In this document: one piece after another, positions 8,023 through 54,100 of the stretch
Layout: the number at the start of each line of letters is the position of its first letter
Numbering within the stretch: position 1 is the first letter of the stretch
DNA from: Tetrahymena thermophila SB210
Lineage: Eukaryota; Ciliophora; Oligohymenophorea; Hymenostomatida; Tetrahymenidae
Assembly: GCF_000189635.1 (NCBI RefSeq)
Contig: NW_002476335.1
Coordinates: 62,001-126,000, forward strand
Length of the DNA stretch: 64,000 bases
Direction: 5' to 3'
Made by a program: the position numbers and the translations under genes
Notes under the pieces: generated by a model
What the model saw: the letters and a program-made list of their open reading frames with translations, nothing else
The model's database searches: none
What the model was told of the DNA's origin: nothing

Positions 8023-11000
8023 ATGTCAAGTTTAGCATAGCAGTTGTCATAGCTCAAATAGCAAGATTAGACAGTTATTAAAAAAAATGATGTAGTATAG
8101 GCAGCTTCCTTACTTTTCCATGCAAAAGTAGCAAGCGCTGTAGATTTAGAGCAAATTTACTCTTTAGCAGTAACTGGTTTTTAGAAGTTATGTATTAAGG
8201 ATGAAAATTTCATGAAATTTTAAGAAGCAATTTTCGGCCCAAAATACAGAAGAGTCGACAGAAATATTTTGCTAAAGAAAGAAAACGAAGAACTTTCTGA
8301 AAAATTATAAGAATTTTTGTGTTTAGTTTCACTCCACTTCTTAGAAGAAGATGCACATAAAATTATTGATTACCTTCTTCGTAATTTTAATGTTCATCAT
8401 TATGAAGCTGAGTATGTTATCATATATTTTATGCATTACCATGCAACCCCTTTTTACACTCGTTTATTATAGAATGTAACTCTTAAGACTCGTGAGCATT
8501 TTGGCTTTTTAAATACTCCTATTTCAAAAGGTGAAATGGTTTAACGTGAAACCATTGCCAAGTAAATCAACTATGATAGTCACATCTTAGCTTAATTAAT
8601 TAAATACAATCAAAAGGTTTCAGACCTTTATTATTCATAGTCTAATAAGAAAAAATCTGAAACTAATGAAGAAAAATCTAATGATGTTGTTTTCAATATG
8701 GTTGGTACTGATAATAAGGCTAGTAAACTTAAAGTAAATCCTACTAGCTTTTTACAAGCTATTTTAATTGATTTGTTATCAATAAAAACTCGTTTGACAG
8801 AGACCTTTGTCAGTAGCTTAATTGAAACTATTAATCATTTCCTCAAGAGAGGAGATCATGCAGCGATTAGCTTTGCCCTAATCGCTTTAGGTTCTCTTTT
8901 AGTTAGAGATAAAAATATTAATACATAAATAATTGATGAGTTTGCATCATTTCTTATTACTAAAATTAACTCTTAATAATTGACAAAGCAAGCTAAGACT
9001 TAAGCAGAAGGAACTAAATGTGTAGAAACTGTAGTAAAATTCCTCTTCTTCATCTGCCAGCGTAATTTCTTGAAACATATTACTACTGCATAACTTAATA
9101 AGTTAAGTGAAGCCTACCAATTTGATGAAATATTCAAAATTAGTTTTGATAAGGTGAGCCAATAATATAGTACACTTAATTTCTTCGCTTTAACTTTTAG
9201 TGCTTTAGTTAGTGGATCTTTAAAGCAATTTGAGTCAAGTATTTCTTTTGTTGAATCTCTTGTTGAAAATTTATAAACCTATGACTCCATCTATTCAAGC
9301 TCTAATCCCGAATTAAAGGACTAATTACTAAAGAATATTGTCTTCGAAAGATTCTTCTTTAGTTCTGAAGTAGGTGAAACTGAAATAAATGTTGATATCT
9401 AAACTGAGGTAGTTGTTTTTATGAAGAAATATTTTTTGGCTGATTTAATTCATTATCTGAATTCCAAAATAGCAGAAGAAACTAGCAATCAAAAGGAAAA
9501 TAATGAAAAAAATGTAAAAGTAGAAAAGTTAAAACATTTTATGAATGAAAATTTCCCTGGAAGTGTATCTTTCCATGAAAATGTTCTTCTCAAAAGAAAT
9601 TTGATCATTTAAACATCATCATCTAAAAATAAGAAGGGAGCTTAAGAAAACAGAGAATATCTTAATGCTATTCTTACAATGTTGAATAACGAACAAAACC
9701 CAGAAGAAAAAAAAGAGTTGTTGGCAAATTATTTGGATTACTTGGTAAATATCATTGTTCTCAAATTAAATGTAGAAACCAACAGCAAAACTCTTAAAAT
9801 AGTTTTCGAATTATTAACTCATCCTGCTATTGAAATTGCTTAATCTGAAATAGAAGATGAACAACGTAGAAACCACTCTAAACTTTAAATGATCTAAGGC
9901 TTCTATCGCTTTTTAATCTCAAATCTTAAAAACTAAGCTGGTGTTACTTTCAAAAAAGAAATAGTGAAGACTTTCCGTACCTTAACTCTTAGAAGTGACA
10001 ATGAGAATGTCTTGTAAAAGTAATGGGTTTTTTCTACTTTCTTTGTGCTTGTTCAATCTGATGATCTTGCAGATAGTTATAAAGAAATTTATTAAACTTT
10101 AAAAGATTATCTTCCTAACATTTTTGAAAAATTGTAAAAAAAGCAATTCCCTATGATTGATTTGTTGCTAAGTGCAAAGAATGAATTCAGTAACTTCCTC
10201 TAGTGTTTGTAAAATCTTAGTAAAGATGTTTTATGCATTTAAGGAATAGCTAATTTTATGGCAAATGTGTTTGATAATGCTGAGTAACTTGCTTTAATTA
10301 CTACTTTGGATGCAGTTTCATAAAAGAGTTTATTACATTCCTGCTTGAGTATCATTTAGAATATAGTTATTGATTCAAAGCACAACAAAAGTGCCAATCA
10401 AATTGATTACATTTTGCTTAATAGCTAGGTTTGTAAATTTATAGTAAAGAACTATAACAACTCTATAGTATCTAACGAAATCATAGTTAATCTACTTAAT
10501 TTCATTTTAGAATAGCCCTAATACGAAAACTTAATTTTAATTAAATCAGATTTGATTGACAAGTTGCCATTCAACGATATTTGCCTTCTTTTAGGTAAAA
10601 AATTCATGTACACTCAAAGCTGTGATGGATTAACTCTTTAAGGTAATATTAAGTGTCTTTTCTTGATTAATTAAACTCTTAAAGCCAACACTGAAAAGGT
10701 AACAAGCTAATTGTCTTATTAACTCTTCACTCTTGCCCTTATAAAGCTTGGTAGTGCCATAGCTTAAGAAAAACAAGGTCTTTTCTTAATAATGGAGAAC
10801 TGTAAGAAAATCCTAAAGAAAAATGCTGGTGAGTTTGATGCTATACGTTTGAGTGATGCATTAAACACAAACACTTGCTTTGTTGGAGTAGAAAATCAAC
10901 AAATGGAATAAGAAAATAACATTGAAAAAGTTAACATTAAATATAAAATTTTGTTAAATTTATGTGAAGTAGTAAGCAAGCACAGAGTAGAATTAGCTGT

Positions 11001-14000
11001 CCATAATCCTCCTATCGGTAAAATTATTGCTAAGGAAGTATAGCAATAGTAGAATAATCAACAGAGAGATTTAAATAGCATATTGAATTTCTTATTGTCT
11101 TAAATTTACTCACAAGTACAAAGTGAATTTTTAGTTTCTTTTATGGGAATTTTTGCTGAAATCGTGAAGCATCACCACTAAGTAGCAAAGCCTAACCAAT
11201 AATAATAATAATAATAACAATACTAATTTAACCTTAATAATATTGATCAAAATCTTTTAATAGAGTTGTTACAAAAATTACGTGAAAATTCATATCTAGA
11301 AAAAGATAATAATTTGATGGCTATGTATGTTGAGTTTTATTCTAGATTACCTAGTGATGAATTATTAAACTCAAACTTCTAATACCTTTATGCAGATGTT
11401 CTTTTACAAAAAATTTCTAAAATTGAAAATAGAAAGCTTAGAGCTACTCTTTTAAGCACTTTTATTTCTTCTTTGGATGATAAAGTATTCCAACGCTTAA
11501 ACGAATCCAATCAGCTTTCTTTCTTAAAGCTTATTTTAGAAAATTTGAATAGCATGACTTTTGATGGTTTAACAGAGCATCTTATTTCTATCAATTTCTC
11601 TAAAGGCATTTGCTAATCTCTTTTAGATTATTTGTAGAATTTAATTAACAATCAACTCAAATTAAAAAAACTTTCACAAAAGCATGAAAATCAAGTTATT
11701 TATATGTTAGAATTAATTTTGTTAAAAGAAGATACTGTAACTTAAGAATTAGATCTTAATAAGTTATTCGATATTATTTAAGTCCCTCTTGCTACTCCTC
11801 GTATTTAGGTGCTACTTTTCAGAATTATCAAAAAGTGCTAAGCCTATAACATTTACTTGCATCAAACACTCCTGTCTTCTGTTAAAAATGTAAATAAATT
11901 ATCAGAAGCAGAAACTGCCTCATTAAACGAAATAAAACTAAGAATAACTGGCGGAGAAAATAATGAAGAATATAAATTTATTGAAATCTTAAAATTCCAT
12001 ATACAAAAAAATACTCCAAAGAGCTCAGAATGGAAAACAACTGATGAAGAAGAACAAAATGGCGAATAATAGTAAGGTGAAGAGATGGACTAAAGTGAAA
12101 AATAATACTTCGAATTGCAACAACTCGAAATAGTTCACGAAACTGCTGATATAATGTGTTTAATTTGTTCAATTAACTTTAAAAAAATAACAAACATTTT
12201 ATTTGATGTGCTTGAGTAAATGTACAAAAACTTCTTATCTGAACAAAAACAAATTGAAAATGAAGAACAAAATAACTAATAATAGGAAGCCTAAACCGAA
12301 GAGTAGAAGTAAATGACCTAATCTTAAATATTAGAATCCAAAGTAGAATTTTTGTTTGAAATCTTTGGTTTTGTTGCTAAGAAATTAATGCAACACGCTG
12401 GAGAAGTGAGACGCAATAAATTAGTTAAATTCTCACTACTACATTTACAAGCTGTTTTTTCTTTATTACCTTATTTCAATTAGCAAAAAACATCAATTCT
12501 TACAAAGATTCGTTAACTTTCTGAAATATATGGTGGTCCTTCAAACCTTCTCAGAGTTCTCTTTATTTAAGCTGCTAATAATCTGACTCACCCCAAAATG
12601 AGTGAAGTTATATTAAAAGAAATACCTTTAGCCATTACTGAATTGCTTTTTTCAAAGCCCGAAAATACCCTTTTGGAAGAAGTTTTAGATGAAAACTAAA
12701 TTTCTGACAATGTATGCTCCAACTCTTTGAACACATTCCTTAACTTTATTAAAGGTGTGTTTGTTCAGTGGACCACTTTCCATTCTCTCCCTTCAGACGA
12801 AAACTTAAACAAGCTTATGAATCCTTAGAGTTTCTTAATAGCTAAGTATCTTTAAATTACTTCCAAACGCCCTAACGCTTGCAAAACTTTCATTAGAAAC
12901 TCTCTTGTTTTACTCCACACTCTTTTTAAGAGTGAACCTTTCTTGCGTACCTTAAAATCATTGATAGAAAAACCTAACTCTACAGAAAAAATTGCAAAAA
13001 CATTCTTCTCATTTTACTATGAGTTAATCCGCTTTGATAACTTGTAAAAGAATGCAATGAGTAGATGTAAATCTTCAAAAGACGGAGGCTTATTGACTCC
13101 TTTTGCTAAACCTTTAAAAAGAATAATGTAAGCATACGCTGTCCTCACATCTTCATTCATCCGTCTCTTCGAAATTGATATTTTCTTCACTATTTGTGCT
13201 CTTATCTTAGATAACAATCATCAAATTTCATATCATATCCGTTCTTCTATTCTTGAAATTATGAATTAATAGCTTGATTCTGCTCCCACCATCAAGAAAA
13301 AACATAACTTTGCAATCATTAGAATTGTTAAAACTTTGCATGAAGAAATTGCTGCTAATTTAAAAACAGTTTATCTTAACAACAGCAACAACATCAATAA
13401 CACAGAGAGTGATAAGGCTGATATTAAAACTAGCGAAAAAACCAAGAAAAATAAGAAATCCAAGCAAAAATAAATTTCTACCTCTTAAGAATAGAGAAGT
13501 ATTTAAAAGTATTTGTCAAGCTGTATTGTTCTATTTACTACTGCACTTAATAGAAAACCTGGTTTATTCTAACCTTAAAATTAATAAATTGACAGTGCTG
13601 GATTAATGGATACCCTCATTTGTTTCGTTGAAAATTAAAACTATTCTTTTATGTTGAAGACTTCTTTAATCTTTTTGATAGCTAACCTTTCTGCTCAAGG
13701 AAACAAATTCAGAGTATTACCTCACCTTCATTCTATTGCTGGTGAATTATTACGTCAAGCTCTCGGATTACTTTACTTTAATGATAAGGACTCCTTCGAC
13801 ACTCTTATCAATATTATCAACAGTTAAAGTGCTTCATCAAAATCTAAAGAAAACTAAGGAAATTCTATGGCCGAGTTTGTTAAGGAAGTATTTGATTAGC
13901 AAAATCTAGAAGTTAACATTTTTAGTTAGCCTTAATATTTCAAACATCAAGATTCTATTGTTAAAAACTTAGATGGTTTGTTTACTTTGGTTGTCCGCTC

Positions 14001-15477
14001 TATTGAAAACTTAATCCTTTGTCTTAAAAATTTAATTTCTCCTTATCTCTCTTTCATATCATTAACTATTTTGAGTTTTTCAGCAAGACCATCTATTCAT
14101 TAACCTCTTACCGAGCTTATCAATAAATTATCCACCTTATTGGAATCACGTGTATTATTAGAGTGCATATTGCTTCCTCATACTGAAACTTGTTAATAGA
14201 TTTCACCCTAAGCTGTTGAATTATACACACTTTTACTTGAAAAGACATTTTAATAGATTGATTCTGATACACTTGATGCATTCCTCTAAGAAATATACAA
14301 GAAAATCTTCTTATCTCTTGATTACACCAGAAAACAATTTATTAATAAAGAATTATACATCCCTGAAACAATAGACGTAGTCGAAGATGCTTAAGTAAAG
14401 TCAGTTGCTGCCTTAGTAATTAAAACTAATGAAATTCAATTACGTAAGTTCTTCATGAATATTGTAACTTGGTCTGAACGTATATTCAATGAATCTGAAT
14501 GTGGATATCACTTCTTAGAATATCGTAAAATTGTTTTATTAAAAATCGTTTTCTAATTATCTGAAACAATGACTTCACTGTTTACTCCATTCTTCAACTT
14601 CATATTTGAGACTTAATTGAATCAATTTAATTCTTTCTCAAAAATATATTCTGTCCAAAACCCTCTTGATCTAATGCAACAAAATGCTTCTCTTAACAAA
14701 AAGAGAAAGAGAGAAGATAATAATGACGAAAATACAAGCATATATCATTAATTATCCTTGAAACTTACCCAACTCAACTTGGCATCCTTAAAGTCTTGCT
14801 TCTAAAACGACAAAGAAGAATTCATTGATACAACTAAGTTCTAAAATCTAATAGAACCTCTTCTTTCAATTTATGATGCATTCTACTTTAATGCTTATTC
14901 TGATTACTTGACCTTCATAGATACCCATTTAGCTCCTACAATAATTTCCTTGTTCTAACTCCTTAAAGAAGATTACAAATGGAAAACACTCAACTATAAT
15001 GTAAATTAAAATCTTATTATTTTTTACTTTATAAAAATATTTTTAAACAGAATTTATTCTTAAAATTTACTTTTTACAATCATTTTTAGATAATCAAAAA
15101 AAATTAAAAAAACCTACTTTTAAATTTAAAAACATTTCAAAAATAGAATGAATGTTTTATATTTTGATTTGCAAATAAATGAATATTTTCAATTGAAAGA
15201 TATGAAAGAATATTAAATAATTTTCAATTAAAATTAGCTTTTGCTTAAGACCAGAAGTGAAAACAGTAAAATTAGATTAGCAATTCTTAAGACACTTGAA
15301 AAGATTCTTGAAACATTTGGTGAAAGATACATGATTTTAGTTAATGACATTTTACCATTTATCAGTGAAACTCTTGATGACCTCGATCCTGAAGTAGAAA
15401 GAATTTCTAAGTCGATAGTAATAAAGCTAGAAGAAATATCTGGAGAGAATATTAGAGAATATTTCAAATCTAAATGA
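8023..15477 (+). CDS. UTP10: UTP10/HEATR1, small-subunit processome scaffold
   Basis: Two exons, 8023-15000 and 15238-15477 (237-base intron), giving 2,405 residues; human HEATR1 is about 2,140 and yeast Utp10 about 1,770. The N-terminus matches the family: MSSLAQQLSQLK, then DVVQAASLLFHAKVASAVD (compare the SLLFDPKEAATID region of HEATR1), then ILLKKENEELSEKLQEFL. The body is long alpha-helical HEAT-like material without low complexity except short Gln/Asn runs, for example near 11205 and 12280. The last exon encodes the family's closing HEAT repeat (KIRLAILKTLEKILETFGE, then PFISETLDDLDPEVER, then EEISGENIREYF). Known role: in the nucleolus, Utp10 belongs to the t-UTP/UtpA subcomplex needed for pre-18S rRNA processing and rDNA transcription. 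I followed the frame along the whole first exon and saw no in-frame TGA, but did not check every codon. Confidence 0.95.
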
Positions 15478-39312: not shown

Positions 39313-42300
39313 ATGAAATAAATTTTAAACGTAGCTGAAAAGCCTTCTGTAGCTAAGGAAATATCAAGAGTATTAGGAAATGGATCTTAAAAAACTTTAG
39401 ATAGTGAATCAAAGTATAATCCTGTATTTTAGTTTGAATATAAACTGAAATAAGAATAAGTTAATATGTTATTCACTTCAGTAACAGGGCACTTAATTTC
39501 ATAAAAATTCGATGATAAATTCAAAAATTGGAAATCTTTTAACCCTTCAGTACTATTGGATTAATCATCTGAAATTTTAAAATTTGTGGAAAGTGATAAA
39601 ATCAGCATATAAAGAAATTTAATAAAATGGGCACGATAAGTTGACACTCTTATTCTTTGGTTGGATTGTGATCGTGAAGGAGAAGCTATAGCTTATGAAG
39701 TAAAATTAATATAAAGGAAGACACTTTTTAATCTTCAAAAATGATAGGTCATAGATATTTGCAGAGAAATCAATAAAAATTTATTAATTAAGAGGGCATG
39801 GTTTTCTTCTTTAGATAGGTTAAATGTTACAAATGCAATTAATAATTTAAGAGATCCTAGAAAGGAACTTTCAGAGGCAGTAGAATCGAGAATGGAAATA
39901 GATTTAAGAATTGGTTCTGCATTTACGGTGTTCTAAACACTCAATTTAAAAAATAATTTTTAAAGCTTAAAAGACAAAAAGGAAGTTATCAGGTAATAAA
40001 AATAATTTATAAACTTTGTAATATTAATAATAACTAAAGAGAATTATTTTATAAAAAAGTTATGGACCTTGCTAATTTCCTACTTTAGGTTTTGTTGTAG
40101 ATCGCTACAATTAAATTTTGAAATTTTAAGATGAGAAGTTTTGGTATATTCAGCCTTCATATTAATGGTAAAAATATAAATTTAATTTTGGTTGAAAATT
40201 TATAGTTCTAGTTATACATTTATTATAAAAGGAAAGATAATAACAAAACTTTGACTGTTGATTTAAAGTGGAGTAGAGGGAGATTATTTGACTAAGCTAT
40301 TGCATCTGTTTTCTATTTGAATTGCACTTAGAATGAAGATGGTGAGTATGATCCTAAAGGTATTGTTGTCAAGAAAAATGAAAGAGATACAACTAAAATA
40401 AGACCTTATCCTTTGACTACAGTTGATTTAACAAAATAGGGTTTTAATTTTTTATTTTCATGATTGCTAATTTTTTTTAATAATTATTTTGTTATAAGGC
40501 TGTAGGATACTGAGAATGGCTTCAGAAAAAATAATGCATACTGCAGAACAGCTCTATTAGAGTGGTTATATCAGTTATCCAAGAACTGAAACAAATAAAT
40601 ATCCTGACACATTTTAAAATGGTTAGTTAATGGATTTAGTTAGAAACCAAAAACAATCAGACGAATGGGGATTCTATTCATCGAATCTGATAGATTAAGG
40701 AAATTTTTAGAGACCTCGTGCTGGTAAATAAGATGATAAGGCACATCCTCCTATTCATCCTATTAAGCTTGCAAATAAAAATTAATTAAAACCTGAAGAG
40801 TGGAAGGTTTATGAATTTATAACAAGACATTTCTTAGCATCTTGCGGTAAAGACGCAGTTGGTGCTAAAACAGAAGTTGAAGTTAAATTCAATGATGAAA
40901 GTTTTAATATTGATGGTTTAGTTGTTAAAGGTAAAGTTTATTTAATTTATTGAATCAGTTTTAATTTTATTTTTTTTATAGAGAAAAATTATTTAGAAAT
41001 TTGGACTTATGAAAAATGGAACGACTCTATTGTGCCTCCACTTTAACCTGGATAAGTGATTATTCCCTAAAAGATTCTGCTATAAGAGGGAAAAACAACT
41101 CCTCCAAAACCCCTTACTGAATCAGAACTTATTGATATGATGAATAAAAATGGTATTGGAACTGATGCTACCATGCACGACCATATCCTTACTATTTAAA
41201 AAAGAGGATATGCAGTTAAGAATTAACATCTTATGTTTACTCCCACACCACTTGGATTAGCTCTATGCCACGCCTATGATCAATTAGGCTTAACTTTAAG
41301 TAAGCCAGACTTAAGAGCAAAGATGGAAAGATTAATGTCAGATGTAGCTGAAGGAAAGACTACAAGAGAAGCTATCATAACATAAATTATGGAAGAGATG
41401 AAATCAATTTATAAAACAGTTGAGCAAAATAAATAACTTTTCATCAAATCTGTAGGCGAGCAGCTAAAAGAACAAGAAAACAGTGCTTCCACTCTCAATA
41501 ATAGTAATATTTAGCCTGGAAGTGAATGTGGAAAGTGCTAAAAAATAATGGAACTACAAACTAATGATTACTAAAGATAATTGGTCTGCAATCCATGTAA
41601 CAAAAGCTACTCCATACCAAAAAATGGAAATCTAAACTTTAGAAATGAAAGATGCCCGTTATGTAATTTTTAGGTATTAGAAGTTACCACTGATAAAGGA
41701 ATTAGTTATAATATATGCCCTTCTTGCTACAATAACCCTCCATATGAATAAGATATAGAGAACTCAAATGCAAATTCTGAAGATTCTAATTTTAAAAAAA
41801 CTTCTATGCCTTGCTATAAGTGCATCAATAAAAATTGTAGCCTTTCTGGAGGTCTCAAAAATATTTCTCTTTACAATTGCCCATGTTGCAACTCTCCTAT
41901 TTAAATAAGAGAGACCAAAAAAGATAAAAAACAATTTATAGGATGTACTAAATACCCAGATTGCGACTGGTCTGTATTTTTACCAAAAGATATTTTATAA
42001 GTAAACTTCCCTTTTAAACTTTATTTGTAATAATTTTCATTTTTAATAGATTTTCCCAACAAGTTAAGAATGCTAATCTTGCAAAGAAAATAACAGAAAA
42101 AGTCTATTAGTAGAGGTAAAATTCGAAGAAGGGGGTTAATATGACACTTTTTGCAGATAAGATAATATTTGTGTGTATCCAGGATGCAATAGTAGTTTGA
42201 AGGAAGTAGGATTTACTTTCAAAGAAGCTAATTAGTCAAAAGCTAATAAGAACTAAAATTCCAACACAAGCTTCTAGAATAACTATAACAAAAATAATTT

Positions 42301-43322: not shown

Positions 43323-44444
43323 ATGAAATAACTATTAGTTGAAAACCCTTTTACAGAAAAAACTCAAATATTTAGATATTAAGATTCATAAGAAGTTAGC
43401 ATCTAATCAATATTACTATTTATTACCTAGAGTCTTAAACTTAATCATTAATTTGTTAATGATTTTAGATTTATTTTAAATGGTAAACAAGTATAGAGTA
43501 ATATTTAGTTAGCATGCAGTTTAGAACATAACTCTATCCTCAGAGTTCTAATGAGAATTAGAGGTGGTAAGGGAGGTTTTGGTTCGTAATTGAAAAAAGA
43601 TGCAAGGGCATAAAAAAAGATTACTGATTGGGATTTATCGAGAGATCTTTAGGGAAGAAGAATGAGAGATGTTAACAATGAAAAAAAGCTAGTTGAATTT
43701 TTCAAAAAGCAAAAATAAGAATAAGAATAAGTTGACAAAGAGTTAAAAGAGTTTAAAGATATGCAAAAAGAGTAAGGAAATCAAAATTTTGGATATCAAA
43801 TAATGAACAATGATTACAAAGACAGAATTGAAAAAGTAGAGGAATCTATATCGAGTTCTGTTTTACTTGGGATAAAAAAGTAAAAATAGAATAAGAATAA
43901 ACCTTCATAAGAATAATAAGAAGAATATGAAAAAGATGAAGACGGATTTAAGATACCAAAAAAACTGAAGAAAAGCGATTAAAACCCTGAAAGTCCCATA
44001 GAAGGCGAAATAAAATAAGAGTTCATTAACTCTATTAACTCTGAAGAGTCAGACAATAAAAGCGAAAAATAAGAAGAAAAAGTTTATTAATTGCCATTTA
44101 CAAAGAGTGATTTAAAATAAGAAGAAATCAGTACACAGAATTTAGATTCTGTAGATGAAAATAAATTAAGTGATTCATAAAATAGTTAATAAAAATAATC
44201 AAATATCGATAAAAATAAATTAATTGCTATTGGTGAAATAAAGGAATTCGATATTATTGAATTAGATTAAATTAAATCTACAGATGATTTAATTAAATTA
44301 GGAGATGCACACTTAAAGCACGAATTAACCAGATTAGGAATAAAAGCAGGTGGTAAACTTGAAGAGAAGGCATAAAGGTTATGGGCAATAAAATAAGATC
44401 CTTCAAACTTATTTAATCCGAAATATCTTGCAAAGAAGAAATGA
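43323..44444 (+). CDS. SDE2: SDE2 homologue (ubiquitin-fold splicing/genome-stability factor)
   Basis: Single exon, 373 residues. Residues 1-82 form the divergent ubiquitin-like fold that ends in Gly-Gly; the block LMRIRGGKGGFGSQLKK (76-92) reproduces the family's GG-KGGFGS processing site. Next is the SDE2-specific helix ITDWDLSRDLQGRRMRDVNN, the most diagnostic segment, then KKLVEFFKKQKQ. The middle is acidic and low complexity. The C-terminus has a SAP-like motif, LKHELTRLGIKAGGKLEEKAQRL in two halves around GIKAGG, then WAIKQDPSNLFNPKYLAKKK, as in SDE2. Known role: after cleavage by deubiquitinating-type proteases at GG, the lysine-starting C-terminal part joins spliceosomes in fission yeast and protects replication forks in human cells. 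Here, cleavage between Gly82 and Lys83 is inferred. Confidence 0.93.
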
Positions 44445-44713
44445 GTTTAATTAAAAGATAAATACATTATATATATATATAATTGATATTATTTGTTATT
44501 TATTTATTTCTTTACTACTTAAGTACCTATCTATCAAATAATTAGTATAAAAAATAAGAATTTTTACATATTCTAATAACTCACTTTTAGATTAATAAAT
44601 TTATAATTTATTTTAAAAACAAACAAATAAAACAAATTTCTTCAAAAAAAAGTAAATAGTTTATAAAGATAGATTAAAATTTAAGCGGAAGTAATTAATA
44701 AGATATATCAAAA
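44445..44713. other. Short intergenic spacer
   Basis: Separates SDE2 from the Q/N-rich gene on the same strand. Contains (TA)n at 44469-44482 and a ctatctatc tract at 44527. Nothing else. Confidence 0.55.
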
Positions 44714-47700
44714 ATGTATAACAATAGTTAAGGAGCTTAGCAATTTTAGCAATAAAACATTTTAAATGATTAAAGCAAAAAGATTGGCACATTTGAATTT
44801 AATTCTCATTAAATGGGAATACATTAAAGTAATATTTAACAATCTAATCTCTAAGATGCTAATTCTAAGTTTAACTCATAAATAGGGATTAGCAGTTAGA
44901 TTAATGAAAAGCAAAAACCTTATTTTTAAAAATAGTAAAACCTAAATTCGGAAAATTCTTAATTAAATGAAGAAAACTCACTCAATTCATAAGAATAGCC
45001 TTCCAGCAATTTCATCAATCAAAATTTATTTCAAAATAATAACTAATAAAATAATATGAATATCTAATAAATAAACATATCTTCATAATAGTATAGCGGA
45101 TTGAAAAATATAAATTAATCAAATAATTAAAATATTCTATCATATTATGATAATAATAGCCATATAGCATTTAATAATTAATTTTGTTAATTATATGAAA
45201 AGGATATAGTTAAAAGCAAAATATATAATTCTTTTTCACAAAAGAATGATATTGAAACAATATCTAATACTGAATAGATAAAGCATTAAATTGTAGATTT
45301 TATTTAAAAGTAATAAAATTAAAACATAAGATAACAAAATTTAATCTTCGAAAATAAAAATGATGAACAGAAATTCAGCTAAAATGAATAAGAATCTAGA
45401 TTGCCTAATAATTTAATTCAATAAAATAGTGCAAACTAATTTTAAAATAAAAGTTACAAAAATGATTAAGCAGTAAACTAAAATTAAGATGGATAATAAA
45501 ATTTTAATTAAAACTAAAGCTCTATTAAACACATTGAAAATGTTTAAATTAGTAACCAAAATTTTAGATAGGGAAACCTCTCAAATTAAGATCAAGAGTA
45601 AAAATCTTAAAATCAAAAAGAATCTATTGAATAGCAACTTTAAAATAAATTTAATAGAGAGCAATAAAATTAAATATATTCTAACAACAACAAATAGTTT
45701 GACAATATGAATTAATATTCACCTGAAAAACACTAAAATCACATAATTTAAGCAAATCCCTAAGTGTAAATACCTTTAAATAAGGATTTTGAATAATAAA
45801 ATAAAATTAATTCACATAATTATTCTGAAAGAAACTAAAAATTAATGAATAACAAATAAATAATTACAAAATAATAAGAAAATTAATGCCAATAACCAAA
45901 TTTTTAATAACAAAATACTTTTAATTAATAAAATTCTTTCTAGTAAACATTCAACAATAATAACAATAATGATACAAATTAAAATTAAGAAGGATAATAA
46001 AATTTTAATTAAAACTAAAGCTCTATTAAACACATTGAAAATGTTTAAATTAGTAACCAAAATTTTAGATAGGGAAACCTCTCAAATTAAGATCAAGAGT
46101 AAAAATCTTAAAATCAAAAAGAATCTATTGAATAGCAACTTTAAAATAAATTTAATAGAGAGCAATAAAATTAAATATATTCTAACAACAACAAATAGTT
46201 TGACAATATGAATTAATATTCACCTGAAAAACACTAAAATCACATAATTTAAGCAAATCCCTAAGTGTAAATACCTTTAAATAAGGATTTTGAATAATAA
46301 AATAAAATTAATTCACATAATTATTCTGAAAGAAACTAAAAATTAATGAATAACAAATAAATAATTACAAAATAATAAGAAAATTAATGCCAATAACCAA
46401 ATTTTTAATAACAAAATACTTTTAATTAATAAAATTCTTTCTAGTAAACATTCAACAATAATAACAATAATGATACAAATTAAAATTAAGAAGGATAATA
46501 AAATTTTAATTAAAACTAAAGCTCTATTAAACATATTGAAAAGGTTTAAATTAGTAACTAAAATTTTAGATAGGGAAACCTCTCAAATTAAGATCAAGAG
46601 TAAAAATCTTAAAATCAGAAAGAATCTATTGAATAGAATCCTTAAAATACATTTAGTTATTAAATTTAAAATAGAGAGCAATAAAATTAAATGTACACTA
46701 ACAACCACTAATAGCTTGACAATATGAATTAACATTCACCTGAAAAACAATAAAATCAAATAATTTAAGCAGATCCCTTAGTGAATATACATTTAAATAA
46801 TGATTTTAAATAATTCAACAATAATAATACAATATAACAAATTTAATCTTAGAATTCATTTAATAATTTCGATTAATAAGAAAATTAAAACTCTCCAAAG
46901 AAAAATCAGGTTGGACATAACTCATTCAATCTCAATTTTTAACAGCCAAAATAATAAGAATAAAATAATTTTCTTGTAAATTAAGCAAATTATTAGTAAC
47001 CTAATTAATACTTTTAATAGCAAATCGAAAACAAACAAATGAATCCTAATTTATAATTAGAACATTAAAATAATTAAAATGTATTCAATAATAATTAGCC
47101 AAATTAATAATAAGCGAATGCCATTTTTTAATATGAGAATTAATAACACTAATAATAGCATAACAATGATATTCTTTCTAATAATAATTAATTTATTTAA
47201 TAACACACCAATGGAACTTAAGATTAAAAAATAGTCAATTAAAATTATTAAGTTCATGAAAACAATTAAATGGATGTTTAAAATTAATAAAATAATTATA
47301 ATTAATAACAAGGTTATAATTATCAAAACATAGATTAAAATATGTTAAATAATAATTAGACAAATTAATAATAAACAAAGGAGAATTATAATTAATTTTT
47401 TTAATTAAACTAATAATAATAACAAAATAGTGATATTATTTCTAATAATAATTAATTAATTTAATATTAGAGCAATGGAACTTAAGTATAATAAATAGAT
47501 AATAATTATTAAGTTCATGAAAGCAATTAAATAGATGTTTAAAATTAATAAAATATTTATAATTAATAATAGGCTTATTATCATCAAAAAGTAGATGAAT
47601 AAATGGAAGTTGAAGATTAAAAAGAAGACTCAATTCAAAATAATTATCAACATAATTAAGAATAAGATAGTAATTATTAGTATTAAAATTTAACTTAGGA

Positions 47701-47941
47701 TTAAATTGAATAATTTGATTTATATAATCAATAGATTATATATATAAATTTAATTTATTCCAATTAACTTAATTTGGAATAATTAATTAAAACATATAAT
47801 AATTTGGTTAAAGTATGTATTTTAAATTAAGAAAATGCTAAAGCAATAGCTTATCTCTTAGATCTTCAAAAAATTGCTAAAGAATATAATATCCTTGATT
47901 TAGAAGAAGAAGTATTTAACCTTATTCAACTATTAATTTGA
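44714..47941 (+). CDS. Q/N-rich repeat protein (prion-like composition)
   Basis: Open for 1,075 codons from ATG to TGA with no intron needed; more than half of residues are Gln or Asn, most Gln being TAA/TAG. It begins MYNNSQGAQQFQQQN. Internal in-frame duplications are conspicuous: a 167-residue unit repeated at 45491, 45992 and (diverged) 46493, and an 88-residue unit repeated twice around 47090-47600 (motif SNNNQFIQ..NGTQ). Between repeats are a few ordered islands. The last 70 residues are normal helical sequence (NLEQLIKTYNNLVKVCILNQ, AIAYLLDLQKIAKEYN). The frame then stops, but coding-like sequence continues in a shifted frame (next entry), so the C-terminus is probably longer. Such proteins often form condensates or aggregates; no function can be assigned. 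The expansions are in frame, which argues for a translated gene. Confidence 0.8.
45491..46860 (+). repeat. 501-base tandem coding repeat, two identical copies plus a diverged third
   Basis: Copy 1 is 45491-45991, copy 2 45992-46492, copy 3 starts at 46493 and loses similarity gradually after about 46640-46860. Copies 1 and 2 look identical base for base over the full 501 bases when read side by side; copy 3 has scattered substitutions and a small insertion. The unit is 167 codons, so the frame is kept. Confidence 0.92.
47090..47600 (+). repeat. 264-base coding tandem repeat, two diverged copies
   Basis: Landmarks gatattctttcta (47168) and gatattatttcta (47432) are 264 bases (88 codons) apart, and flanking text stays alignable on both sides with many substitutions. 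Older than the 501-base duplication in the same gene. Confidence 0.8.
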
Positions 47942-48554: not shown

Positions 48555-48782
48555 TTATTTAATTCTTTCTATTTAATTAAACATATAAATTAACTTAAAT
48601 CTAAATATTATCTTAATTGTAAAGATAGCAAATTATTTTAATTTAATGTATTACTAACATTTATTTAATTCTTTCTATTTAATTAAACACTTAAATTTAA
48701 TAAAACATATAAATTAATTTAAATCTAAATATTATCTTAATTGTAAAGATAGTAAATTATTTTAATTTAATATATTACTAAA
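48555..48782. repeat. Imperfect tandem repeat, about 106-base unit
   Basis: Two copies starting ttatttaattctttctattt at 48555 and 48661. The second carries an extra segment of about 16 bases (acttaaatttaataaa). Both share atctaaatattatcttaatt and gtaaagatag. A weaker trace of gtaaagatg appears near 48920. Non-coding. Confidence 0.8.
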
Positions 48783-48971
48783 ATTTATTTATTTATTTGA
48801 TTTATTTAATACATTTATTTAATTTAATTGTAAATGTTTATTGGTAGACTAAAAGTCTGGTAAAAAAAATATTGTAAAATAAAATATTACTTTAAATACA
48901 TGGATTTAATTTTAATTGTAAAGATGACAAAATATTTTATTTAATATATATAAAAACTATCAACCATTAAT

Positions 48972-49083
48972 TTAATGTGTTAATACTTGTAAATACACTA
49001 AATACAAATAATTATGACTTAAATCTAGAATGAATATATATTTGCATTTTTCTTTGAGCAAAATGAATGTTATATATCTTCAC
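48972..49083 (+). repeat. Left terminal inverted repeat
   Basis: Contains ttgagcaaaatgaatgttat, mirrored in the right arm. Confidence 0.92.
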
Positions 49084-49291
49084 AATTTCAAAATAATGAT
49101 ATTTTATCTTCAATTAATTTATTCTTCTCTAAATAAATTCATCACAGATTCTATGAATTCATTTATACTTGTCGTGTAAATTTCAAATGAAATCAGTATA
49201 ACCCATACTAAAATCAATATAAAAATAAATTTTATATTAGAGATAAAATTTAAATATAAGATAAAGAAAGGTGAAAAAAAGACAAATAAAA

Positions 49292-49654
49292 ATGAATGAA
49301 GAATAAAATTTATTGAATCAAATTCCTTATTTAAATATACCTAAGATTATATTTCCATTTGAATCAAGTGAAAATATTAAAATAATGAAGGAAAGCATTG
49401 AAAAAGATGAATAAAATTTAGAAAAATTAAAATAAATAAAGGTTAATGAAGAAATTAAGATTGAATATTAATGGAGACTTAAAGAATTATAAAACTATAT
49501 AAAGGATTCAAAAGAAATACTAAAAGAACGTGAGGAATTATAGAGAAAAAATTCAAAAGTGAATATTTTCTTGAGTAGATTAAAGATCATATTGAAAATA
49601 TTTTGTTTGTTTGTTGTGGCATCGATAATACAATACATGTGGAAGAAAATGTGA
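49292..49654 (+). CDS. Small coiled-coil, tail-anchored membrane protein
   Basis: 120 residues, ATG to TGA. The first 30 residues are polar (MNEEQNLLNQIPYLNIPKII). From about 40 to 95 there is a charged heptad-rich helix (ENIKIMKESIEKDEQNLEKL, KELQNYIKDSKEILKEREEL), and the end is a hydrophobic segment, ILKIFCLFVVASIIQYM, followed by WKKM, the layout of a tail-anchored protein. It lies wholly between the arms of a 112-base inverted repeat, with the TGA on the inner edge of the right arm, so it may be cargo of that element. Composition and length look like a real gene; no family recognised. Confidence 0.6.
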
Positions 49655-49762
49655 GGATATATAACATTCATTTTGCTCAAAGAAAAATACAAATATATAT
49701 TCATTCTAGATTTAAGTCATAATTATTTGTATTTAGTGTATTTACAAGTATTAACACATTAA
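49651..49762 (-). repeat. Right terminal inverted repeat
   Basis: Reverse complement of 48972-49083 with two mismatches; the first bases overlap the stop codon of the 120-codon frame. Confidence 0.92.
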
Positions 49763-50184
49763 TTAATTTATGATTTAAAAATATTCGCTTATAACTTTTT
49801 TTTCCAATATATTTCATTGTTATCATATAATTATGTTAATAGACAAAATATTTTATTAAAACATTAGTTCAATAAATATAAATAGCTTCTTTTAAATAAT
49901 CAATCATTAAAAATGTATAATTAATATTAAAAATTTTATTTCAAAAGTTATCTACAAACTCAACGTTAAACATACCTTTAATATCATAATTAGTATTTTA
50001 TATTTAATTCTCAGATATTTAAAGCTTTTTTATATATTATTTATTTTCTAACATATATTATTAAAGTAGCTCTTAGTTTTCAAGGGTATTAATATTCTAA
50101 AGCATTATATATAATATCAAAAATATAAAAACTGTAAATGGTTTTATGTAATAATAGTAAAATCTTTAAAATAAAGTAGATCAA

Positions 50185-51174: not shown

Positions 51175-54100
51175 ATGCTTAATAATGGATCTTCTTCTAC
51201 CCTAAAAGATTTTGATACATTAGGAAAATTAGGATAGGGTAGTTTTGGTGTAGTGTATAAAGTAAAAAGAGTTGTAGATGGAAATGTGTATGTCATGAAG
51301 TAAATAAACATCAGTAAAATGAATAGCAGAATGAAACAGGATGCAATTAATGAGGTTCACATTCTCTCAAAGTTGAATAACCCATATGTAGTTAAATATT
51401 ATGATTCCTTCGTTGATAAAAATTTGTTATGCATTGTAATGGAATATTGCGATAGCGGTGATCTATCTTCTTTTATTAAAAGCTAACTAGGAAGGCCATT
51501 ATAAGAAATGAAAATATGGAAGTATTTCATTATGTCTTGTATGGGGCTAGATTATATTCATAGGAAAAAAATATTGCACCGTGATATAAAGGCAATGAAT
51601 ATTTTTTTGAATAAAGATGATAGTTTACGTATTGGTGATTTGGGAGTTGCAAAAGTATTGTCTGATCAAGGAAATTTTGCCAGTACTATGGTAGGAACAC
51701 CTTTTTATTTATCACCAGAAATGTGTGAAGAAAAACCATACAATGAAAAATCTGATATTTGGAGTTTAGGATGCGTTTTGTATGAATTGTGCACTTATCG
51801 TCACCCTTTTGAAGCACAGAATTAAGGAGCTTTAGTTTTAAGAATCATAAGAGGCAAATATAATCCAATACCTACAAGTTATTCGAAAGATTTAGTAAGC
51901 ATGGTTGATATGTGTTTATGTAAAGATTATAAGAAAAGACCAAACGCAAGAGATATTTTGTAAACTTAAAGTAATTATTCCATTTTATTTGTTAAAAGCA
52001 TAAATTATATATCTGTATTATAAAAATTAAACCAGTTGTATTAGGAAAAGCAAGCTAATTAGGGATTGAGCTAGACTACACAAAAGTGAAATAAAAAGAA
52101 TTAAATTATTAATAGAAAAAAGAAGGATCAGTAAGCGTGCCTACTACAGTACCTTCAACTCCTTCATCAAATAAAAGTAAGAAATAAAAATTTTGATTAC
52201 TTTTTATGTTCTCATTAAGCTATTATATAATGTTTAATTTTATTTTTAGATCTTATAGATAAATAAAGAGAAAAAAATAATGCTCTCCTCAATCCAAATA
52301 ATCAAAATAAACCAATAAGCCACAGCCCTTCCTCTCATAATGTTTAAGCTGCTGCATAATAAAAAGCCAAAGATGATTTAATAAAAAAAATGCAATAAGA
52401 TGAAAGGGATTTAAATAAAAAAGTAGAACAAAAACTAATTTAATAGAATTTATAACAAATATAAAACAATGATAAGAAGTATAAAGACAGAATCTAAGAA
52501 TTATATAAAAAGGAGGAATAATTCAAACTGTTACAAAAATAAGAACTAGAAAGATAAAAAAATACAGAGTAAGTTCTCTAGATGTAAAAAAAGAGAGAAG
52601 AGTAAATGAAAAAAGATGAAGAAAGAAAATTATTAGAAAAAAAGAAAAAAGAGGCTGAAAAGAAAAAAGAGGAAGAAGAGTTAAGAAAAAAAAAAGAACT
52701 CGAAAAGTAGAAATAGGAAAAGGCAGCTGCAGCAGCTTTGTCTCAGCAATAATAATTAGTAAAAGAAAAGGAAGACTAAATCAAAAACGAATTTAAAATT
52801 AGATAAAATGGATTTGATCCTAGAGTAAATCAAGTTTCTTAATAGTAGCAAGTAAGTAAGGTTGAAAGAACTTCACCAAAGCAATCAGATAGCAAAAAGT
52901 AGCTGTTTGGAAATTAAATGCCTAACAATTTCAATAAATAGGTATAATAAGTTCAACAACAGCTTCCTTCTCAATTTGGTTACCAAAAAGTATGTATTTT
53001 AAAATTGTAAAAATAAATAATTTTTTTATATGCTATTTTAAATTAAATAGCAATAAGTTGAAAAGAAAAAAGAAATCATTTCTGAAAGAAAAGAGTCTAT
53101 CAAACCAAAAGAAGACGATAGAAAGAATATTTAAAGAATTAGAAAAGGAGCTCCTACTGGTCTTGGAAATATTGCCAAAAACCCTTTAAGCTATGGGTAT
53201 AAAGTAAGATATACTATGAAAGAACAATTTAAAAAAAAATAATTATTTTTAAATAGGATGTCAGACAATCAAAGGATGGAAGACCTTCAGATTTCAGTAT
53301 AAAACAATAAAATTTTGCTAAAAATCAAATACTAATTTAGTAATTAATTAATTAAAAGGTTATGAATAAGATTAAGACAGACAAGAAGTTTATAACTTAC
53401 CTGATAATGTCCACAAGTAAAGAAATGCACCTAAATCAGCACAACCATACAAGCCAACTGTAAATGATCTTAGAAATATTGCAAACTCAGGATTTGAAGA
53501 AAATACCTCTAAAATTTCTTCTCAAAGAGGATCAGTTATGTCTAACTAGACATCAAAATCATAAAATGACTAAAGAATCGTTGAGCAAAAGAGACTTAAT
53601 AGACCAGAATAAGGAAAATTACCATCAGTTGAAAGCTTTGATAGTTCTTTTGAAGATAGTCCTAATAAGCATATTAGCGTACAGAGCGCTAGCAGTCTTC
53701 AAAAATAAACATAAGAAGATAAGGATATGTAAAATGCTGTTTTAAATTAAGATTTAAATAGACCTCACACAGGTTAGTTAAAAGAAAAGCTGCACTATAA
53801 TAAACCTTTTGTGGATAAAGAAATTACGGAAAAATATGAAAAAGAGTTACAAAAACAAAATAAATAAAATATCTAATAAATTGTAAATGATAGCTTTATT
53901 GATAAGGAGTTTTGTTCCTCTTCAGACGATGATAAAAAGAGTAAATAAAATATTAAAAAATCAGATAAAAAATAAAATTTGGAAAACACATAATTCGAAT
54001 TTATTCCTGTCCCTAAAGCTAAAGAATTAAAAGATTGGAATAATAAAATTTAATTAGATAATAGTGAACAATAATAATAATGCTCTGAAGAAGAAGAAGA

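What the first reader, a model, noticed from the sequence alone, without database searches (positions are those of the whole stretch)
48972..49762. TTAA-bounded element with 112-base inverted repeats carrying a small tail-anchored protein frame
Seen: two 112-base arms, reverse complementary with two mismatches, outer ends both TTAA, 567 bases between them containing one complete 120-codon frame with a C-terminal membrane anchor. Known: piggyBac-type elements insert at TTAA, and domesticated piggyBac transposases excise internal eliminated sequences in ciliates. Inference: a non-autonomous element that survived in, or inserted into, the expressed genome, possibly with a cargo gene. Near-identical arms mean it is young or kept by gene conversion.
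Basis: partly seen in the sequence, partly recalled or inferred. Interest (0 to 1): 0.75.

Follow-up and report, generated by a model that had tools for sequence, protein, structure and literature searches.

The report
Solitary inverted-repeat insert in Tetrahymena macronucleus
A single short stretch of Tetrahymena DNA is bracketed by two nearly identical mirror-image arms around a small membrane-protein-like gene; it looks like a lone leftover of a jumping gene or a local mirror duplication, and the claim that it belongs to the piggyBac type is not borne out.

Summary
The inverted repeat is real: arms 48972-49089 and 49645-49762 (118 bp, three mismatches; 112 bp, two) far exceed anything else in the 264 kb compared, with TTAA at both outer ends. 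The genome is the Tetrahymena thermophila macronucleus. The piggyBac reading is weak: inside TTAA stands TGTGTT, not the published CACTTT or CCC; TTAA falls exactly at an arm end in 3% of low-GC positions, within two bases in 17%; a 7-bp flanking repeat, ATTAATT, competes. Arms and protein were found only here in the 101-Mb assembly, so no mobility is shown; the germline could not be searched. The 120-codon frame (49292-49654) has gene-like codon use for its low GC (2 of 253 comparable frames match it) and a C-terminal hydrophobic helix, but long frames are common (278 of 1000 shuffles), and its stop lies inside the right arm. Best reading: a solitary macronucleus-retained insertion with terminal inverted repeats, superfamily unknown. 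Close rival: local inverted duplication of a small gene's 3' end. Micronuclear sequence would decide.

The parts
48972..49089 (+). left arm of inverted repeat (112 bp with 2 mismatches; 118 bp with 3)
49645..49762 (-). right arm of inverted repeat; contains the last codons and the stop of the 120-codon frame and 108 bp downstream of it
48972..48975 (.). outer TTAA of left arm
49759..49762 (.). outer TTAA of right arm
48966..48972 (+). left copy of the alternative 7-bp flanking direct repeat ATTAATT
   Evidence: 7 or more in 0.85% of pseudo-elements in low-GC DNA
49762..49768 (+). right copy of the alternative 7-bp flanking direct repeat ATTAATT
49090..49291 (+). stretch between left arm and frame; its last 35 codons in frame score as non-coding; would hold any promoter and 5' UTR
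   Evidence: promoter role is inference
49292..49654 (+). 120-codon frame (code 6): charged helical region, then C-terminal hydrophobic helix (Kyte-Doolittle 19-residue maximum 2.17 from residue 92)

Best explanation
A solitary 791-bp insertion with long terminal inverted repeats, retained in the somatic (macronuclear) genome of Tetrahymena thermophila, in the 3.2-kb AT-rich spacer between a Q/N-rich frame and a protein kinase gene. It most likely entered the germline as a non-autonomous DNA transposon, or is the ends of a longer one whose middle is excised during macronuclear development, and escaped elimination. It carries a small tail-anchored-protein frame whose 3' end runs into the right repeat. 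The superfamily is open: TTAA ends allow a TTAA-type element, but the terminal sequence is not the published Tetrahymena piggyBac one. Shown: arms, TTAA, no second copy found in this assembly, gene-like codon use for its GC. Inferred: insertion, origin, escape from elimination, expression.
For: The arms end flush on both sides and are far beyond background. The whole unit, non-coding arms included, is richer in G+C (left arm 20.3%, pre-frame 17.8%, frame 21.2%, right arm after the stop 19.4%) than the 300 bp on either side (11.7% and 14.0%). PMC5182062 section 15 (read) reports about 1 Mb of putative TE sequence retained in the T. thermophila macronucleus, in some instances biased towards terminal regions of TE consensuses. 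The frame scores 0.152 bits per codon, best of six frames, reached by 2 of 253 ATG frames of 100-200 codons with GC under 24% outside the training genes.
Against: No second copy of arms or protein, and no convincing second copy of the spacer, in 101 Mb. No transposase in the unit: the frame has no Pfam match above a curated cut-off. Terminal sequence unlike the published Tetrahymena TTAA elements. All target-site readings are short and A+T only; a repeat of 4 or more, as TTAA is, arises in 22.5% of pseudo-elements. Coding evidence is modest: without the GC limit 41 of 336 frames, and in a first test 14.9% of 712 frames of 90-250 codons, score as high; another frame of the same stretch scores 12.0 bits against 18.3. 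No germline, RNA or strain data could be consulted.
Confidence: 0.45

Rival explanations
1. Local inverted duplication: the last codons, stop and 108 bp downstream of a small lineage-specific gene were copied in reverse orientation about 560 bp upstream by fold-back or template-switch repair. No transposition is involved and TTAA is incidental.
For: No convincing second copy of any part in the genome. The duplicated segment begins within three codons of the frame's stop codon and covers its 3' flank. TTAA lies exactly at a position in 3.2% and within two bases in 16.6% of low-GC positions, and TTAA density in the flanks is 4.8-6.8%. Two tandem copies of about 124 bp lie just to the left (48571-48823, 89% identical), so the spacer has seen local duplication. 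Fold-back inverted duplication after breaks is described in yeast (PMC10622511, abstract and outline only).
Against: A 7-bp flanking direct repeat is not expected (0.85%). The G+C step at both outer arm ends needs a second cause.
Confidence: 0.35
2. True piggyBac-type or TPB1/TPB6-type TTAA element or IES, retained in the macronucleus.
For: TTAA at both outer ends. The assembly encodes piggyBac-family transposase domains on three contigs (8 matches to PF13843), and TTAA-bounded, precisely excised IESs exist in this species (PMC5182062 section 17; PMC7599177 passages).
Against: Terminal bases TGTGTT, not CACTTT, CCCT(A/T)T or CCC(A/T)(C/T)T. The six published coding-region IESs are described as exceptionally short (three are 136, 188 and 194 bp); this is 791 bp. 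It is present in the macronucleus, whereas those IESs are removed. TTAA at the arm end is weak evidence in this AT-rich DNA.
Confidence: 0.12
3. A hairpin-RNA locus: transcription through both arms gives a long stem that is diced into small RNAs.
For: Folded as RNA the unit forms one long stem, -232.9 kcal/mol against a mean of -115.6 (sd 6.55) for 20 shuffles, z -17.9.
Against: Any such inverted repeat does this. No second genomic place with more than a short match to the arms was found. No small-RNA data. Two literature searches gave listings that I could not tie to this locus.
Confidence: 0.06
4. Assembly artefact.
For: Fold-back reads can create inverted copies (general knowledge).
Against: The arms differ at three positions and enclose 555 bp that is not itself an inverted repeat.
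Confidence: 0.02

Closest known systems
TTAA-bounded coding-region IESs of Tetrahymena thermophila (excision by Tpb1p/Tpb6p according to PMC7599177, passages)
   Same: TTAA at both ends, inverted-repeat-bounded unit, same species
   Different: Those have CACTTT ends, lie in coding regions in the six cases of PMC5182062, and are removed from the macronucleus; this one reads TGTGTT, lies outside the neighbouring coding frames and is retained.
Miniature inverted-repeat transposable elements (MITEs) of ciliate germlines, e.g. Blepharisma (PMC9942856, listing and start of abstract only)
   Same: Small, inverted-repeat-bounded, no transposase (definition of MITE recalled)
   Different: MITEs are multicopy; no second copy of this one was found in the assembly searched.
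Flanking inverted repeats that set IES boundaries in Tetrahymena (PMC6547420, passages)
   Same: Inverted repeats left in macronuclear DNA
   Different: Those are short motifs (5-10 bp) some 45-62 bp outside an excised IES; these arms are 118 bp and enclose retained DNA with a coding-like frame.

Membership tests
piggyBac-type / TPB1-TPB6-type TTAA element | TTAA at both ends of the element | tested here: met
   weak, 3.2% exact and 16.6% within two bases by chance
piggyBac-type / TPB1-TPB6-type TTAA element | terminal repeat CACTTT (IESs) or CCC-type (germline piggyBac) just inside TTAA | tested here: not met
   TGTGTT on both sides against the published consensus
piggyBac-type / TPB1-TPB6-type TTAA element | encodes or depends on a piggyBac transposase | tested here: inconclusive
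   no Pfam match above cut-off in the unit's frame; PF13843 domains encoded elsewhere in the assembly
piggyBac-type / TPB1-TPB6-type TTAA element | precise excision to one TTAA during macronuclear development | not testable with these tools
   needs micronuclear and progeny sequence
MITE / TIR transposon in general | terminal inverted repeats at both ends | tested here: met
MITE / TIR transposon in general | target-site duplication | tested here: inconclusive
   TTAA, TTAAT or ATTAATT depending on the boundary chosen
MITE / TIR transposon in general | dispersed copies | tested here: not met
   none found in the 101-Mb macronuclear assembly; germline not searched
IES boundary inverted repeats (PMC6547420) | short motif pair at similar distance outside an excised IES | not testable with these tools
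   no micronuclear sequence; the arm length argues against it

The most novel reading that the evidence does not exclude
A germline transposon-derived unit that has stopped being eliminated and now serves as a somatic gene: its terminal repeat supplies the stop codon and 3' end of a young tail-anchored protein gene, i.e. a transposon end domesticated in the macronucleus of a species that normally removes transposons.
Probability: 0.15. Interest if true: 0.6.

Novelty: new member of a known kind. Interest (0 to 1): 0.3.

Why it matters
Tetrahymena removes about 95% of its putative transposon sequence from the somatic genome (PMC5182062 section 15). An intact inverted-repeat unit that stays and carries a frame would be a dateable case of escape from elimination, and its arms a ready probe for germline relatives. 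If it is only a local inverted duplication, it matters little beyond annotation.

Tried and rejected
Copies elsewhere. Arm as DNA, three patterns with up to 3 mismatches, spacer, left flank, right flank, protein. One search found 5 places beyond the two arms (the reversed control pattern found 6); 4 of the 5 were compared with the unit by BLAST (L037-L040) and 1 (C426) was not fetched. Searches found 2 and 1 further places where the reversed controls found 0; these 3 of 3 were fetched. In one search five of these loci (L037, L038, L046-L048) were compared with the arm: best E 1.1e-6 (L047, arm 1-106 at 71%) and 1.2e-6 (L046). Of 112 pieces of C4 as control one was better (1.3e-7) and one equal (1.2e-6), so these two rank high among controls; but they had been picked for holding a match, and none of the five has paired arms (two AT-rich self-palindromes in L038). 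I take them as background; distant relatives of the arm are not strictly excluded. The spacer has one weak second match, about 60 bp at 87% on C186 with 29 identical bases, in AT-rich sequence without the arms; the right flank has one on C314, 78%, not followed.

Protein relatives: Pfam best E=0.005, below its cut-off; Protein Data Bank sequences best E=0.22; viral contigs none confirmed of 17 pattern matches. A single-sequence AlphaFold2 model (mean pLDDT 81.3) has long helices at 26-47 and 56-119; Foldseek gave no PDB match at E<=0.001, best E=1.4, so no function is named.

Rfam: no match in the window at the gathering score. ARAGORN, bacterial code: no tRNA.

The tandem copies left of the unit were considered as part of it and left out, because they stop before the arm. 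A sequence model of the arms was built but could not be used on the whole genome and was not used further.

Not in print: I make no such claim; paper searches were made, and the two main papers on TPB1/TPB6 (PMC5238731, PMC5766162) are not held.

Full report
What is there. The window is 62001-126000 of contig C199 in a 101-Mb, 445-contig assembly. GGGGTT arrays occur at both ends of contig C4 (listing; length 465,941), long frames are open under code 6, and a telomerase reverse transcriptase frame is letter-for-letter identical over long blocks to PDB 6d6v, which I know as the T. thermophila enzyme (the species of that entry is recalled, not printed). So I take this to be the T. thermophila macronuclear genome. 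Arms 48972-49089 and 49645-49762 are reverse complements with three mismatches (two over 112 bp), with TTAA at both outer ends. The pair is the only one at E<=1e-5 in the 64-kb window and far above the 18 pairs in 200 kb of another chromosome.

The frame. 49292-49654 encodes 120 residues under code 6. Length is no evidence: 278 of 1000 shuffles have an equal or longer frame. Codon use is somewhat better evidence: 0.152 bits per codon against a low-GC background, best of six frames, though the next frame has 12.0 bits against 18.3; 2 of 253 ATG frames of 100-200 codons with GC under 24%, outside the training genes, reach it, but 41 of all 336 do when richer frames are included, and in a first test 14.9% of 712 frames of 90-250 codons did. 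The GC limit was my choice. The C-terminal hydrophobic maximum (2.17) is matched in the last 32 residues of 21 of 604 frames of 100-250 residues, of which 4 have no other hydrophobic stretch; the frame's own 155-codon reading is probably among them. The upstream 35 codons look non-coding. A single-sequence model gives two long helices with the anchor in the second; no relative was found by sequence or fold. The stop codon lies inside the right arm, so the arm supplies the 3' end of the presumed gene.

Is it a TTAA element? TTAA is met, but it is weak evidence in DNA this AT-rich: exact at 3.2% and within two bases at 16.6% of low-GC positions. The published coding-region IESs of this species carry CACTTT inside TTAA and the germline piggyBacs CCC-type ends (PMC5182062 section 17); this unit has TGTGTT. 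Other boundaries give direct repeats TTAAT (5 bp) or ATTAATT (7 bp); 7 or more arises in 0.85%, 5 or more in 4.6% and 4 or more in 22.5% of pseudo-elements. I therefore do not file it as piggyBac.

Is it mobile? The arm, the left flank and the protein matched nowhere else in the macronuclear assembly, and the spacer and right flank have one weak AT-rich second match each. Mismatch-tolerant patterns found 8 further places in all; 7 of the 8 were looked at and none holds a paired-arm unit, although two align to the arm about as well as the best controls do. The genome search skips common words, and the germline, where other copies would live, is not held. Retention of transposon sequence in the macronucleus is reported: about 1 Mb, with terminal bias in some instances (PMC5182062 section 15).

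Judgement. A solitary retained TIR-type insertion (0.45) is preferred over local inverted duplication (0.35), on the flush ends, the possible 7-bp duplication and the G+C step. The margin is small. The rest is shared among piggyBac proper, a hairpin-RNA locus and artefact. The near-identity of the arms fits youth or gene conversion; nothing here separates them.

Noticed in passing
window 44381-47941 (+): Q/N-rich 1186-codon frame with 224 TAA/TAG glutamine codons and an internal duplication with an offset of about 501 bp (45475-46298 and 45976-46814, 95% identical), plus a second pair at 47067-47335 / 47326-47596 (81%).
   Followed up: partly
window 8023-15477 (+): Single open frame of 2484 codons with a BP28CT domain, matching UTP10/HEATR1 chains in the Protein Data Bank.
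   Followed up: partly
window 48571-48823: Two tandem copies of about 124 bp (89% identical) just left of the unit, in DNA of about 12% G+C.
   Followed up: partly
window 51175-52089 (+): Protein kinase gene (Pfam Pkinase, E=1.2e-67), the nearest clear gene downstream.
   Followed up: no
window 41137-42144 (+): C-terminal part of a DNA topoisomerase (Topoisom_bac) with a TOP3B-type zinc ribbon.
   Followed up: no
G000:C411:1656-3258 (L008, L010, L011, L013): piggyBac-family transposase domain in four pieces near the start of a contig, with fewer reassigned codons (TAA/TAG) inside the matches than the copies on C209 and C114.
   Followed up: no
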